DNA from: Dichelobacter nodosus
GTDB lineage: Bacteria > Pseudomonadota > Gammaproteobacteria > Cardiobacteriales > Cardiobacteriaceae
Length of the DNA stretch: 64,000 nucleotides
Direction: 5' to 3'
Assembly (NCBI RefSeq): GCF_001263335.1
Contig: NZ_LGVW01000012.1
Span: 124,001-188,000 of the forward strand
Shown here: positions 3,699-36,034 of the stretch, piece by piece
How positions within the stretch are numbered: position 1 is the first letter of the stretch
How the letters are laid out: every line of letters starts with the position of its first letter
Made by a program: the position numbers and the translations under genes
The notes under the pieces: generated by a model
What the model was told of the DNA's origin: nothing
Database searches by the model: none
What the model saw: the letters and a program-made list of their open reading frames with translations, nothing else

Positions 3699-6473
3699 AT
3701 GGCAGATTACAAACACACCCTCAATCTTCCTCAAACTGATTTCCCGATGCGCGGCAATCTTGCCCAGCGCGAACCCGAACAATTGCGCTGGTGGCAGGAA
3801 CACGAAATTTATCGTAAACAACGCGAAGCTTTTGCCGATTGTCCTACTTTTATGCTCCATGACGGCCCGCCTTATGCAAATGGACAAATTCACGTGGGGC
3901 ACGCGCTCAATAAAATTTTAAAAGACATCATTATCAAATCGCGGCATTTGCTCGGTTATAACAGTCCTTACGTTCCCGGTTGGGATTGTCACGGGCTGCC
4001 GATTGAACAAAAAGTTGAACAAAAAATCGGTAAACCCAATCAAAAAGTTTCTGCTACGGAATTCCGCGCGGCATGTCGCCGTTATGCTGCTGAACAAGTT
4101 GCATTGCAAAAAGATGGTTTTATGCGCTTGGGCATTTTTGGTTTTTGGGATCAACCTTACTTAACCATGAATTTTGAAACCGAAGCGCAAATTGTGCGTG
4201 CGCTGCGCGATATTGTAGCTGCTGGACACGTTACCCAAGGTTTTAAACCGATTAATTGGTGTTTTGATTGCGCTTCTTCATTAGCGGAAGCGGAAGTGGA
4301 ATATCAGGATAAAACGTCTTATTCCATTGATGTTGCTTTTGCCGTGAAAGACGTTGCCGCGCTGGCAAAAATAATGCACGCTGACGTTGTGCCTGCTGCT
4401 GTTGACGTTGTTATTTGGACGACGACGCCGTGGACATTGCCTGCCAACGTTGCCGTCAGTATTCACCCTGAATTTTATTATGTTTTGGTTGAGATTGAAG
4501 GCTGGTATTGCGTTGTTGCTGAAGAACTGATTCCGGCGCTGAAAAGTCGTTGGAAAAAATCTGCCGATTGGCGCATTTGCGGACGCGCGCTCGGTAAAGA
4601 TTTAGATCGTTTAATGTTGCGCCACCCGTTTATCGATCGCGATGTTTTACTCATCAACGGCACGCACGTTACTTTAGATGCCGGAACGGGCTGCGTTCAT
4701 ACCGCACCGGCGCACGGTGTTGAAGACTATGACGTTTGTCAACAATATGGCATTGATCTGATTCATTGCGTTTTGGGTAACGGTCTTTATAACGACGATA
4801 CGCCGCATTTTGCCGGTCAACATATTTTTGCCGCCGAACCGCAGATTATCGAATTATTGCAAACGCAAAACCGTTTGATTGCCGTGGAAAAAATCACACA
4901 TAGTTATCCGCATTGTTGGCGCCATAAAACGCCGACGATTTACCGCGCGACCACGCAATGGTTTATCAGTATGGATAAAGCGGGATTACGGCAAAAAGCG
5001 TTGGACGGACTAAATGAAGTTGCGTTTACGCCGGATTGGGGCAAACCGCGCCTGCTTAATATGATTGCTCATCGTCCGGATTGGTGCATTTCGCGTCAAC
5101 GTTATTGGGGCGTGCCGTTGTGTTTTGTGGTGGATAAACAAACCGGACAATTGCACCCCGATATTGTGAATATTATGGATAAAGCGGCATCAGCTATTGA
5201 GCAAAAAGGCGTGGAAGCGTGGTATGAATTATCGCTTGATACTTTGCTTTCCGGAAAAGAAGTTGATCGTTACGAAAAACTCAATGATGTTTTAGATGTT
5301 TGGTTTGATTCCGGCACCACGCATTATTCCGTCTTAAAAAAACGCGCGGAATTATCGTATCCCGCGGATTTATATTTAGAAGGTTCTGACCAACACCGCG
5401 GTTGGTTCCATTCTTCCTTATTAACCGCCAGCGCTATTACCGGTAAACCGCCTTATAAAGCTTTGTTAACACACGGTTTTACCGTTGATGAAGACGGGCG
5501 CAAAATGAGCAAATCATTAGGTAACGTTGTTGATCCCAATCAAGTGATTAAAACGTTAGGCGCGGATATTTTGCGGTTATGGGTTGCCTCTGCGGATTAC
5601 ACGGCGGAAGTGAGTTTATCGCCCAATATTTTGAATCAACGCGCTGATGCTTATCGTCGCATGCGTAATACTTGCCGCTTTTTATTGGCGAATTTGCACG
5701 ATTTTGATCCGGAAAAAAATAGCGTTGCTTATGAAAAACTGCTGCCGTTGGATCGTTACGTGATTGCGGTGGCGCACGATTTGCAAGAAAAAATCAAAAA
5801 ATTGTATGTTTCTTACGATTTTCATTTGATTTATCAAGAAATTTTTAATTTTTGTTCCGTGATGTTGGGCGGATTTTATCTGGACGTGATTAAAGACCGA
5901 CAATATACCGTGGCGCAAAATGCGTTAGCGCGGCGCTCGGCGCAAACCGCGATTTTTCATATTATTGAAGCAATGGTGCGTTGGCTGGCGCCGATTTTAT
6001 CGTTTACCGCGGAAGAAATTTGGCGGTATTTACCAGGGAAACGCGAAGAATCAGTGTTTTTAACAAAATTTTATGAAGGATTGCAACCGCTTAACGATGA
6101 TTTTTTATCGATGCACGATTGGGAATTGCTGTTGCAATTGCGGGAAAAAGTCAACGCCGCATTAGAAAAAGCGCGTAATCAAGGCATTATCGGCGGTTCG
6201 TTAGAAGCGATGGTGGTATTACATTTGCCGCCGCAAGAATATGAAATTGCGGCGCGATTCGAACAAGAATTGCGCTTTATTTTGATTGTTTCGGCGGTTA
6301 ACGTACAACCAAGCGCGGCATTGTCCATTGAAGTGCAGCACGCGATCGGCGAAAAATGCGAACGTTGTTGGCATTATTTGCCCGATGTTGGCACCGATCA
6401 CCAGCACCCAACTTTATGCAAACGCTGCATTGAAAACGTTGACGGCGGTGGCGAATTGAGGAGATTTGCGTGA
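3699..6473 (+). CDS. ileS: Isoleucyl-tRNA synthetase
   Basis: Class I aminoacyl-tRNA synthetase, 924 residues (E. coli 938), charging tRNA-Ile in the cytosol. [16 protein letters not shown] carries the HIGH signature in the form HVGH; an editing (CP1) domain occupies the middle with [27 protein letters not shown] is the KMSKS loop near residue 605; the C-terminus ends with a zinc knuckle CERCWHYLP...CKRC. Start at 3699 ([11 protein letters not shown]) is supported by AAAGG upstream and by the family N-terminus; the reading frame is open further upstream inside ribF. Its stop codon overlaps the lspA start. Confidence 0.97.
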
Positions 6474-6937
6474 TGAATTGGGCAAAACGTTCGGCGTTTT
6501 TTCTCATCAGCGTTGCGTGTTTTCTCGCTGATTATTACAGCAAATATTGGGCGCTGACCGAATTGGGAGCACGGAAAATTGTTGTCAACACCTATATGAA
6601 TTTTATTTTAGCGTTTAATCACGGCGCGGCTTTTAGCTTTTTAGCGCGCGCCGGCGGTTGGCAGCGTTGGTTATTTGCGGGATTCGCCGGCATTGTGGCG
6701 CTGTGGTTGATTATGACATTGCTCACAAAAAGCCATCATTGGTTGATGAGCGTGAGTTATGCCTGCATTTTGGGCGGCGCCGTGGGTAATTTATACGATC
6801 GCGTGGTTTATGGTTATGTCATTGATTTTATTCAATGGCATTACCGTACTTTTTATTGGCCGGTCTTTAATCTTGCTGATGTTGCCATTACTTTGGGCGT
6901 TATATTGATGCTGATTGCCGAATTACACCGACGATAG
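6473..6937 (+). CDS. lspA: Lipoprotein signal peptidase (signal peptidase II) LspA
   Basis: Aspartyl protease of the inner membrane that removes signal peptides from prolipoproteins such as the OmpA-like and YkuD lipoproteins in this window. Four hydrophobic helices; conserved boxes DYYSKYWA, FNHGAAFSF, GGAVGNLYDRV and VFNLADVAI, the last two supplying the two catalytic aspartates. The start is ATG 6473 (154 residues), sharing one base with the ileS stop; a GTG at 6470 is an alternative, with GAGGAG serving either. Last gene of the ribF-ileS-lspA block; fkpB and ispH, which often follow, are absent here. Confidence 0.95.
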   Translation: MNWAKRSAFFLISVACFLADYYSKYWALTELGARKIVVNTYMNFILAFNHGAAFSFLARAGGWQRWLFAGFAGIVALWLIMTLLTKSHHWLMSVSYACILGGAVGNLYDRVVYGYVIDFIQWHYRTFYWPVFNLADVAITLGVILMLIAELHRR

Positions 6938-6960: not shown

Positions 6961-6986
6961 AAGTCGACTGCGGTCGACTTTTTTTT
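6961..6986 (+). terminator. Rho-independent terminator of ribF-ileS-lspA
   Basis: Perfect eight-base-pair stem AAGTCGAC / GTCGACTT, TGCG loop, followed by an eight-T run (counting the two at the stem base), 23 bases after the lspA stop. It faces a second terminator read from the minus strand; the two T runs form a palindrome T8-GCGC-A9. Confidence 0.9.
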
Positions 6987-6989
6987 GCG

Positions 6990-7066
6990 CAAAAAAAAAG
7001 CCGGTTTTTTTAAACCGGCCAACAACCACCAAAGGAGGATATAGAGGAGATAACATCGATGATGTC
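6990..7066 (-). ncRNA. Candidate small RNA, about 77 nt, with anti-Shine-Dalgarno tract
   Basis: A consensus promoter at 7074-7102 would start a minus-strand transcript near 7066 that ends at a strong hairpin plus nine T (stem GCCGGTTT / AAACCGGC, 7000-7019, T run 6991-6999). The RNA would open with a hairpin (ACATC / GATGT), then an unpaired C/U-rich stretch with TCTCCTC and TCCTCCTTT, then the terminator stem. TCCTCC is complementary to Shine-Dalgarno sequences. No gene follows on this strand, since lspA is convergent, so it is not a leader. An ATG at 7056 opens a short frame (MLSPLYPPLVVVG) but has no ribosome-binding site. The gene is predicted from sequence signals alone; no family was recognised. 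Confidence 0.65.
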
Positions 7067-7073
7067 GGGGTGC

Positions 7074-7102
7074 ATTATAGGGTTGTTGCTGCAACGCGTC
7101 AA
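7074..7102 (-). promoter_or_regulatory. Sigma70 promoter of the candidate small RNA
   Basis: On the minus strand TTGACG (plus 7102-7097) and a perfect TATAAT (7079-7074) are separated by exactly 17 bases. The region further upstream is very AT-rich, as expected of an UP element. Confidence 0.8.
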
Positions 7103-7430
7103 TCAGAATAATGATTTTTTACATTAAACTTTATCCATATTATTTATTGTTTTAATTCAATAGATTACGAAAAAATATTGAATTTTATAATCCAAAATCA
7201 TAATTGCTGCATAGCAGCATAAAATCATAAAATAAAATTAAGGTAAAATAAAAATATAACTCATTGAAACTAATAAATAATCTAATAATTGCCGTTTTCG
7301 GTCAAGAAAAAAAGAAATAAGGAAAAATAAATAACAAAATTGACAAATAAAAAATGAGCAAATTTCCGTTGCACTAAGTAAAAATAAGCTTTTTTCTAAA
7401 AAACCATTAAAAACAGCGCAAAACACAATA
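7103..7430. other. AT-rich non-coding stretch with two inverted repeats
   Basis: About 330 bases of very low G+C between the small-RNA promoter and the terminator of the GST gene. A perfect nine-base inverted repeat AATTCAATA / TATTGAATT occupies 7154-7162 and 7176-7184, and TGCTGC-ATA-GCAGCA lies at 7205-7219, flanked by two copies of AAAATCATAA. The only reading frame (minus, ending near 7238) starts inside the GST terminator and is low-complexity, so no gene is called. A regulatory or DNA-bending role is possible but not shown. Confidence 0.5.
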
Positions 7431-34759: not shown

Positions 34760-36034
34760 TTATCCCCAAAATGCTAATAAAGGTGAAATCAGTAATAAGA
34801 ATCCGGTAATGATGATGAGATGCAAAGAAATGCCTCGATATTTCCGGAGAAAGTCTACTTTATAAACCAAATAAGCAGGAATCAAGCAGCCGACGAGTCC
34901 AAAAATGGGGCTGCAAATAGAAGTAAACATCAAAACGGGCGCATTTAATACTACGGCGCTCCACGCCAAAATGATGGCAAAAAACATGATGCCTTTTTGT
35001 ACCCAATCGGCGTTGATTTTTTCCGCCGGCATATAACGCAATAAAATATTCATGACGATGCCTTGGGTGGCTTCACGAAATCCTAAATAAACGCCGAAAA
35101 ATGCCGTCATTACCGCAAAAATGTTGAGTAATACGCCGACATAAGTTGCCCAACTGCCGGGGAAAATTTGCGCGACGATGGCAAGGGCGGAAATATTTTG
35201 TTCGTAAGCTTTTACGGCTTCATCGTGTCCCATCGATAAAGTGAAGGAAACGGCGTAGAAAAAGACGGTGACAAAAAGCGTAATAAAGGCGATATTCATC
35301 GCGCGCAACGCTTTATAACGCGCAACTTCTGGTGATTGTTCTTTAGCGCGGTAGGAAATGACCATTGGGCTTAAAGTTTGAATAAATAAAATGGAGGTCA
35401 GCGTAAACGGAAGCGTAATAATCGCATCTTTAATTAATTTACCAACGGGCGGCAGCGCGCCGATGTTGGATAATTTCCACATGCCAACCATGGATAATCC
35501 CAAAGCGGCAACAATGACTAATTTGGTCAGCACCATAAAACTGGAGATTTTAAAAAGCAGCTTTTCGCCGCGGGAAGAAATCGCTACTAATATGCAAATC
35601 AGCGCCAAACCGTAAAAAGGACTATCAGATAATAAGGTTTTGGTGACGCCGAAGGTTTTTAAATAGGAGGCGCTGTCGTTGGTGATGGCAGTGGTATAAA
35701 CAAACATCCAAATCACCAGCATGACGAAGTATAAAAGCCCGAGGAAGATGCCCCAGTTTTTGCCCAAATAACCGGAAATCACGGAAGGATAATCTTCACA
35801 TTTGGGCGCTTCCGCCAGCGTATTAATGAAAAGCCGTTGGAATAAATACATCGCGGGATAACCGATGATGGAAGAAAGTAAAAATACCCACATACCCATC
35901 AAACCCACTTGCACCGGCAAAAAAACGATACCGGCACCAATTGCCATGCCGATACTCATAATGACCCAGCCGACATCGGTTGAATCAAATTTAATTTTTT
36001 CCGGAAGGGAAGAAGTTGCGTTTTGTTCTTGCAT
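34760..36034 (-). CDS. cyuP: HAAAP-family amino-acid permease (CyuP/YhaO-like)
   Basis: Inner-membrane secondary transporter, 424 residues, eleven or so helices. Opens with VGWVIMSIGMAIGAGIVFLP, the family's first helix, and ends in hydrophobic RGISLHLIIITGFLLLISPL. Start at ATG 36034 (MQEQNATSS), supported by GAGGT six bases upstream; an earlier in-frame codon at 36064 adds ten residues without support. Pairing with the desulfidase gene suggests cysteine import. Divergent from clpB. Confidence 0.85.
   Translation of the reverse strand: MQEQNATSSLPEKIKFDSTDVGWVIMSIGMAIGAGIVFLPVQVGLMGMWVFLLSSIIGYPAMYLFQRLFINTLAEAPKCEDYPSVISGYLGKNWGIFLGLLYFVMLVIWMFVYTTAITNDSASYLKTFGVTKTLLSDSPFYGLALICILVAISSRGEKLLFKISSFMVLTKLVIVAALGLSMVGMWKLSNIGALPPVGKLIKDAIITLPFTLTSILFIQTLSPMVISYRAKEQSPEVARYKALRAMNIAFITLFVTVFFYAVSFTLSMGHDEAVKAYEQNISALAIVAQIFPGSWATYVGVLLNIFAVMTAFFGVYLGFREATQGIVMNILLRYMPAEKINADWVQKGIMFFAIILAWSAVVLNAPVLMFTSICSPIFGLVGCLIPAYLVYKVDFLRKYRGISLHLIIITGFLLLISPLLAFWG

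What the first reader, a model, noticed from the sequence alone, without database searches (positions are those of the whole stretch)
6990..7102. Stand-alone small RNA gene with a consensus promoter and an anti-Shine-Dalgarno tract
Seen in sequence: TTGACG-17-TATAAT on the minus strand, a predicted transcript of about 77 bases with a 5' hairpin, an unpaired TCTCCTC...TCCTCCTTT tract, and a near-ideal intrinsic terminator. No gene follows on that strand because lspA is convergent, so this is not a leader. Known: CU-rich loops in bacterial small RNAs often pair with ribosome-binding sites. Inference: a trans-acting repressor of several mRNAs, of no family I recognise. No Hfq or target evidence is available here.
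Basis: partly seen in the sequence, partly recalled or inferred. Interest (0 to 1): 0.68.

Follow-up and report, generated by a model that had tools for sequence, protein, structure and literature searches.

The report
Conserved anti-Shine-Dalgarno regulatory small RNA
This is a real, stand-alone gene for a roughly 76-base RNA whose core matches the ribosome-binding sites of mRNAs. It has relatives in nearly all members of its bacterial order and in about a third of the wider class sampled, and it is probably a metabolic off-switch that is itself controlled by the storage-polymer regulator PhaR.

Summary
A minus-strand gene (promoter 7102-7074, RNA about 7066-6991) is conserved in 30 of 32 genomes of the order, whatever the neighbouring genes. 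Its 5' hairpin covaries, and a 27-base core TCTCCTC(T/C)ATATCCTCCTTTGGTGGTT is invariant there. It is a stand-alone small RNA, not a leader and not an ORF.

It does have relatives: RF02278 ("toxic" sRNAs; B. cenocepacia NcS27, B. pertussis S17S) and, in architecture, Neisseria NmsR. It scores below every Rfam cut-off (33.7 against 50 bits), so I do not file it as a member. A covariance model from these sequences finds it in 111 of 369 Gammaproteobacteria genomes.

Best explanation: a trans-acting repressor that covers ribosome-binding sites with two anti-Shine-Dalgarno elements. One osmC-like mRNA in this genome has a perfect 15-base match at its ribosome-binding site, but that match is not conserved.

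New lead: the promoter carries a site matching the known PhaR-binding consensus. Across sRNA loci this site goes with presence of a PhaR gene (13 of 15 genomes with the site, 5 of 44 without). The genome has PhaR but no detectable PHB synthase.

Expression, targets and PhaR binding are untested.

The parts
7204..7220 (.). second PhaR-like palindrome, TTGCTGCATAGCAGCAT, upstream of the sRNA promoter
   Evidence: 12 of 14 specified positions of YTKNTGCRNYGCANMAR; intergenic. Weaker than the first site; not checked in relatives
7086..7102 (-). PhaR-like operator overlapping the -35 box and spacer, TTGACGCGTTGCAGCAA
   Evidence: 13 of 14 specified positions; one of the three best-matching intergenic places in the genome; conserved in 9 of 12 family genomes and associated with a PhaR gene
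7097..7102 (-). -35 box TTGACG
   Evidence: conserved as TTGACG/TTGACA in family f1
7074..7079 (-). -10 box TATAAT
   Evidence: conserved
7067..7073 (-). GC-rich discriminator GCACCCC
   Evidence: sequence; G+C-rich in most family f1 loci but not in L010. Resembles the GC-rich discriminator noted for NmsRA
6991..7066 (-). small RNA, about 76 nt (ends inferred, not mapped)
7052..7066 (-). 5' stem-loop SL1, GACATC ATC GATGTT
   Evidence: covariation across 23 distinct sequences, 98.9% of cells paired
7044..7050 (-). anti-Shine-Dalgarno element 1, UCUCCUC
   Evidence: unpaired probability about 0.8-0.9; invariant in the order
7026..7044 (-). weak middle stem-loop SL2 that presents element 2
   Evidence: predicted clearly in family f2 relatives; nearly invariant, so covariation says little
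7031..7039 (-). anti-Shine-Dalgarno element 2, UCCUCCUUU
   Evidence: invariant in the order; resembles the 3' tail of 16S rRNA (own knowledge)
7023..7037 (-). CUCCUUUGGUGGUUG, exact complement of the osmC-like ribosome-binding site (G000:C28, about 35085-35100)
   Evidence: 15-nt exact match
6991..7020 (-). intrinsic terminator stem-loop and U tract
   Evidence: sequence varies but a stem and T run are kept in relatives

Best explanation
The locus encodes a stand-alone, probably Hfq-assisted, trans-acting small RNA. Its two anti-Shine-Dalgarno elements (UCUCCUC, and UCCUCCUUU presented by a weak middle hairpin) pair with the ribosome-binding sites of a set of mRNAs, block translation and damp parts of metabolism or transport. 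In this family and several others its transcription is probably governed by PhaR, which would bind the operator overlapping the -35 box and, by analogy with the alphaproteobacterial sRNA MmgR, repress it. Shown here: a conserved gene, a covarying 5' hairpin, an invariant core, Hfq and PhaR genes in the genome, and an association of operator and PhaR across genomes. Inferred: transcription, RBS occlusion, the identity of the targets, Hfq dependence, and PhaR binding with its direction of effect.
For: Homologous DNA in all 11 other family genomes at 82-90% identity and in most family f2 genomes; model hits in 30 of 32 genomes of the order. The core is invariant and the flanking genes differ. SL1 covaries. 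Related loci in 111 of 369 Gammaproteobacteria, many of them also matched sub-threshold by RF02278. Relatives tested in the literature act by covering ribosome-binding sites: NmsR (PMC5362039), S17 (PMC11722255); NcS27/RF02278 has predicted RBS targets and metabolic phenotypes (PMC5688073; PMC10987360). Hfq and a two-domain PhaR are encoded. An osmC-like mRNA has a 15-nt perfect match at its ribosome-binding site. The PhaR consensus in the sRNA promoter goes with PhaR genes: 13 of 15 genomes with the site against 5 of 44 without, Fisher p 1.8e-7; by family 5 of 5 against 4 of 26, p 7e-4. On genomes outside those where the motif was first seen, 4 of 5 against 5 of 35, p 0.006. PhaR represses the sRNA MmgR in S. 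meliloti (PMC12542648).
Against: No expression data. The osmC pairing is not conserved: no match to this protein in the rest of the family, and the f2 relatives whose start region could be read lack the site. The genome-wide target screen is only modestly above decoys (19 genes at -24 kcal/mol or better against 9.9 +/- 4.0), and comparison with 19% of one relative gave no convincing conserved target. In this genome an alternative fold partly hides the 5' arm. Five PhaR-bearing genomes have no site at their sRNA. The PhaR pattern was noticed after the fact, its cut-off and search region were chosen by me, and genomes are not independent.
Confidence: 0.76

Rival explanations
1. The RNA is mainly a general brake on translation: by imitating the 3' end of 16S rRNA it pairs with many Shine-Dalgarno sequences without a specific regulon, as the 'toxic sRNA' name of RF02278 suggests.
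For: UCCUCCUUU resembles the 16S tail (own knowledge); overexpressed relatives slow or kill E. coli (PMC5362039; PMC4603805); the target screen shows broad SD complementarity with little excess over decoys that keep the cores.
Against: The whole 27-nt core, not only the CCUCC motifs, is invariant across the order apart from one C/T position. [quoted passage not shown] coli and represses specific mRNAs. NmsR has a defined metabolic regulon.
Confidence: 0.15
2. The main partner is another RNA: the sRNA is sponged by, or sponges, a second small RNA, as CrfA does with SisA-D in Caulobacter.
For: SisA-D carry an anti-Shine-Dalgarno 10-mer and are held in check by a sponge RNA (PMC12559287).
Against: In the own genome no place outside the gene shares more than 12 nt with the complement of the RNA except the osmC-like RBS, so no dedicated sponge with long complementarity is visible; a short or imperfect one is not excluded.
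Confidence: 0.05
3. The conserved element acts from the plus strand as a small leader-peptide gene (AGGAG...ATGATG), and the minus-strand features are incidental.
For: Plus strand reads AAAGGAGGATATAGAGGAGATAACATCGATGATG, an RBS-like stretch before an ATG.
Against: The predicted peptides differ wildly in sequence and length between family members, and the f2 loci examined have no ATG there. The minus-strand promoter and terminator are conserved.
Confidence: 0.02
4. It is a cis leader or 3' fragment of a neighbouring gene.
For: It lies between lspA and a glutathione S-transferase gene.
Against: Own promoter and terminator, lspA convergent, and different flanking genes in other genomes.
Confidence: 0.02

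Closest known systems
RF02278 Betaproteobacteria toxic sRNA (B. cenocepacia NcS27/bdhR1 kind; B. pertussis S17S)
   Same: Shared order of parts: UCUCCUCCA, UCCUCC loop, GGUGG, terminator. Rfam's model aligns over its full length (E 9e-6), and many intermediate loci are hit by both models. L276 (UGUCUCCUCCACCUCCUCCUUUGGUGGAUUUAGCCC) contains the complement of most of a B. pertussis S17 primer.
   Different: 33.7 bits against a cut-off of 50; an extra 5' hairpin SL1 close behind its own promoter, whereas S17S is a processed form; a shorter AU linker between the two elements; single copy.
NmsRA/NmsRB (RF02877 for NmsRb; NgncR_162/163), Neisseria
   Same: Three stem-loops with two UC-rich anti-SD regions, one between SL1 and SL2 and one in the SL2 loop; sigma70-type promoter; GC-rich discriminator.
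   Different: 23.2 bits against a cut-off of 52; single copy rather than a tandem pair; no sign here of the TCA-cycle regulon.
MmgR / alphaR8 family (RF00519), including Caulobacter SisA-D
   Same: Anti-SD core before a terminator; MmgR has a PhaR site in its promoter and is repressed by PhaR (PMC12542648); SisA-D carry an anti-SD 10-mer (PMC12559287).
   Different: 20.7 bits against 41; no common descent shown; no hit of my model outside the class in a phylum sample, though the sample may hold few other classes.

Membership tests
RF02278 (toxic sRNA / S17S / NcS27) | score at or above Rfam's gathering score (50 bits) | tested here: not met
   33.7 bits for the window; 27.9-34.8 for six relatives
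RF02278 (toxic sRNA / S17S / NcS27) | conserved CU-rich 5' stretch, anti-SD loop, GGUGG arm, terminator | tested here: met
   full-length model alignment 1-64 and conserved core
RF02278 (toxic sRNA / S17S / NcS27) | continuous chain of intermediates to accepted members | tested here: met
   G254 is over the RF02278 cut-off (67 bits) and is also hit by model R2 (E 0.0016); several loci at 44-49 bits lie between
RF02278 (toxic sRNA / S17S / NcS27) | growth inhibition of E. coli when expressed | not testable with these tools
   bench test needed
NmsR (RF02877) | gathering score (52 bits) | tested here: not met
   23.2 bits
NmsR (RF02877) | three stem-loops with two anti-SD regions | tested here: met
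   fold of family f2 relatives; in the own genome SL2 competes with an alternative fold
NmsR (RF02877) | tandem sibling copies | tested here: not met
   one copy in the genome; sibling copies exist in other families
NmsR (RF02877) | repression of TCA-cycle mRNAs through the RBS | tested here: inconclusive
   energy screen gives no clear TCA targets
MmgR / alphaR8 (RF00519) | gathering score (41 bits) | tested here: not met
   20.7 bits
MmgR / alphaR8 (RF00519) | PhaR site in the promoter, repression by PhaR | tested here: inconclusive
   site present; binding and repression not tested

The most novel reading that the evidence does not exclude
An old regulatory pair, PhaR acting on an anti-Shine-Dalgarno sRNA, spans at least five Gammaproteobacteria families (GTDB sense) and resembles PhaR-MmgR in Alphaproteobacteria. 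In reduced Cardiobacteriaceae genomes it has outlived the PHB synthase, so PhaR there senses something other than PHB granules and the sRNA is one of its chief remaining outputs.
Probability: 0.42. Interest if true: 0.76.

Novelty: new variant of a known kind. Interest (0 to 1): 0.6.

Why it matters
RF02278-like anti-Shine-Dalgarno sRNAs are described, in the papers read here, as a betaproteobacterial affair. Here the kind appears in about 30% of sampled Gammaproteobacteria genomes, with no Rfam sRNA cut-off reached in the 16 distant loci scanned, so a widespread class of metabolic RNA regulators may go unannotated. The PhaR association gives a testable upstream input, and in genomes that keep PhaR without a detectable PHB synthase it asks directly what PhaR senses when there is no polymer.

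Tried and rejected
Rfam at gathering score: nothing in the window and no sRNA family in 16 distant loci. Text search for the core sequence in papers: none. Plus-strand small ORF: peptides not conserved. Conserved osmC target: no match in the rest of the family, sites not kept in the f2 homologs that could be read. Exact CCACCAAAGGAG in the order: about ten further places besides the sRNA genes and the osmC-like site, against three for the reversed control. Only the four with fetched context were looked at: three had no convincing gene start behind them, and one (L240) lies 5 nt before an ATG opening a 68-codon ORF, which I did not pursue. Conserved targets against 380 kb of relative G004: nothing convincing, and several start codons were plainly miscalled. 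A sponge RNA with long complementarity: none seen.

Full report
Observation. The minus strand holds TTGACG-17-TATAAT (7102-7074), a seven-base G+C-rich discriminator, a short hairpin, TATCTCCTCTATATCCTCCTTTGGTGGTTGTT, and an intrinsic terminator ending near 6991. lspA (6470-6937) is convergent and a glutathione S-transferase gene lies upstream on the same strand. The promoter match alone is unremarkable: one site in 64 kb reaches 11 of 12, and simulated sequences give 0-3. The predicted RNA folds better than shuffles (z -3.2).

Conservation. DNA searches find the same element in all 11 other genomes of the family (82-90% identity; named members include Cardiobacterium hominis, C. valvarum and Rappaport israeli) and in most genomes of a second family of the order. 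A covariance model finds it in 30 of 32 genomes of the order, one copy each; the two without it are G014 (91% complete) and G029 (80% complete). Oriented side by side, the loci of these two families share TCTCCTC(T/C)ATATCCTCCTTTGGTGGTT(A/G)TT without other exceptions, while flanking genes differ. The 5' hairpin is kept through changes on both sides in 8 of 9 pairs, 98.9% of cells paired; the middle hairpin is nearly invariant and so uninformative; the terminator varies in sequence and was poorly aligned in that count. This is strong evidence for a stand-alone structured RNA.

Wider family. With a model built from 31 sequences, 111 of 369 Gammaproteobacteria genomes drawn evenly over the class have a match at E 0.01 or better, against about four expected by chance if the rough E-values hold. 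Typical distant members read CUCCUCCAUCCUCCUUUGGUGGUU before a terminator. Some genomes carry two to six copies, several in tandem. None of 16 distant loci reaches any sRNA family of Rfam at gathering score. The Rfam family RF02278 rings at many of the same places but is over its cut-off in only 2 of 274 genomes, and one of those two (G254) is also hit by my model. So the window's RNA and RF02278 are parts of one continuum. L276, from a genome in the same family as G254 (f111), reads UGUCUCCUCCACCUCCUCCUUUGGUGGAUUUAGCCC, and a published primer for B. pertussis S17 is complementary to the stretch UGGUGGAUUUAGCCC, which ties S17S to this continuum. Because the window scores 33.7 against a cut-off of 50 bits, I do not file it as an RF02278 member; it works like one and is very probably related.

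How it works. In relatives the fold is SL1, a single-stranded UCUCCUC stretch, SL2 presenting CCUCCUU in its loop, and the terminator. That is the arrangement described for NmsR, where both regions pair with target ribosome-binding sites. S17 and NmsR have been shown to repress mRNAs at the RBS, and NcS27 affects carbon-source use. The genome encodes Hfq. I infer RBS occlusion. Target evidence in this genome is thin: an energy screen gives 19 genes at -24 kcal/mol or better against 9.9 +/- 4.0 for decoys that keep the anti-SD cores. One candidate stands out: CAACCACCAAAGGAG, a 15-nt exact match, starts 21 bases before the ATG of an OsmC-like protein. It is the longest match in the genome apart from the sRNA gene itself, but it is not conserved, so it is either a lineage-specific target or a coincidence.

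Upstream control. In nine of twelve family genomes the promoter spacer reads TTGACGCANNGCARCA or nearly so. This matches the PhaR-binding consensus TGCRNYGCASMA determined in Bradyrhizobium and YTKNTGCRNYGCANMAR of Ralstonia. The own genome encodes a two-domain PhaR, and its sRNA promoter is one of only three intergenic places at 13 of 14 positions, with a second, weaker palindrome about 100 bases upstream. Across sRNA loci with known PhaR status (family f2 thinned to six), the site is present in 13 PhaR-positive and 2 PhaR-negative genomes (both incomplete: 72% and 86%) and absent in 5 and 39 (p 1.8e-7; by family 5:0 against 4:22, p 7e-4). Three Cardiobacterium-type genomes (genus g4) lack both. 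Restricting to genomes outside those where I first saw the motif gives p 0.006. The test is post hoc, uses a cut-off and a search region that I chose, and is not corrected for shared descent beyond the family count. PhaR represses MmgR in S. meliloti through a similar site, so repression is the likeliest direction. PHB synthase (PF07167) was found in only one of 32 genomes of the order and not in this one, so PhaR here must answer to something else, or a synthase too divergent for the model exists.

Verdict. Real, conserved, and ordinary in kind but not in reach: a gammaproteobacterial branch of the anti-Shine-Dalgarno sRNAs, with an unexpected and testable link to PhaR. Not shown: transcription, targets, Hfq binding, PhaR binding.

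Noticed in passing
G000:C11, about 65784-65954 (outside the window): A PhaR protein (PF07879 and PF05233) in a 1.45-Mb genome with no detectable PHB synthase; the same holds for most PhaR-bearing genomes of the family.
   Followed up: partly
L146 (G099), minus strand, 1501-1738: Two tandem sibling sRNAs, both with PhaR-like sites in their promoters; that genome has four copies in all.
   Followed up: partly
G332 (six copies), G313 (three in tandem), G207, G176, G172: Multi-copy sibling arrangements of the same sRNA kind in other families.
   Followed up: no
G000:C28:35107 (outside the window): OsmC-like gene whose ribosome-binding site is a 15-nt exact complement of the sRNA; no match to this protein was found in the rest of the family.
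   Followed up: partly
L276 and L278: RF02278-like loci of an apparently betaproteobacterial family (f111) with full 10-of-10 PhaR-consensus matches upstream; PhaR status of those genomes not tested.
   Followed up: no
L240, minus strand, near position 1500 (G017:C2:263531): CCACCAAAGGAG lies 5 nt before an ATG that opens a 68-codon ORF; could be a further target-like site or chance.
   Followed up: no
window 6961-6980: A second terminator-like stem (plus strand, for lspA) lies just beyond the sRNA terminator, so the two genes end back to back.
   Followed up: no
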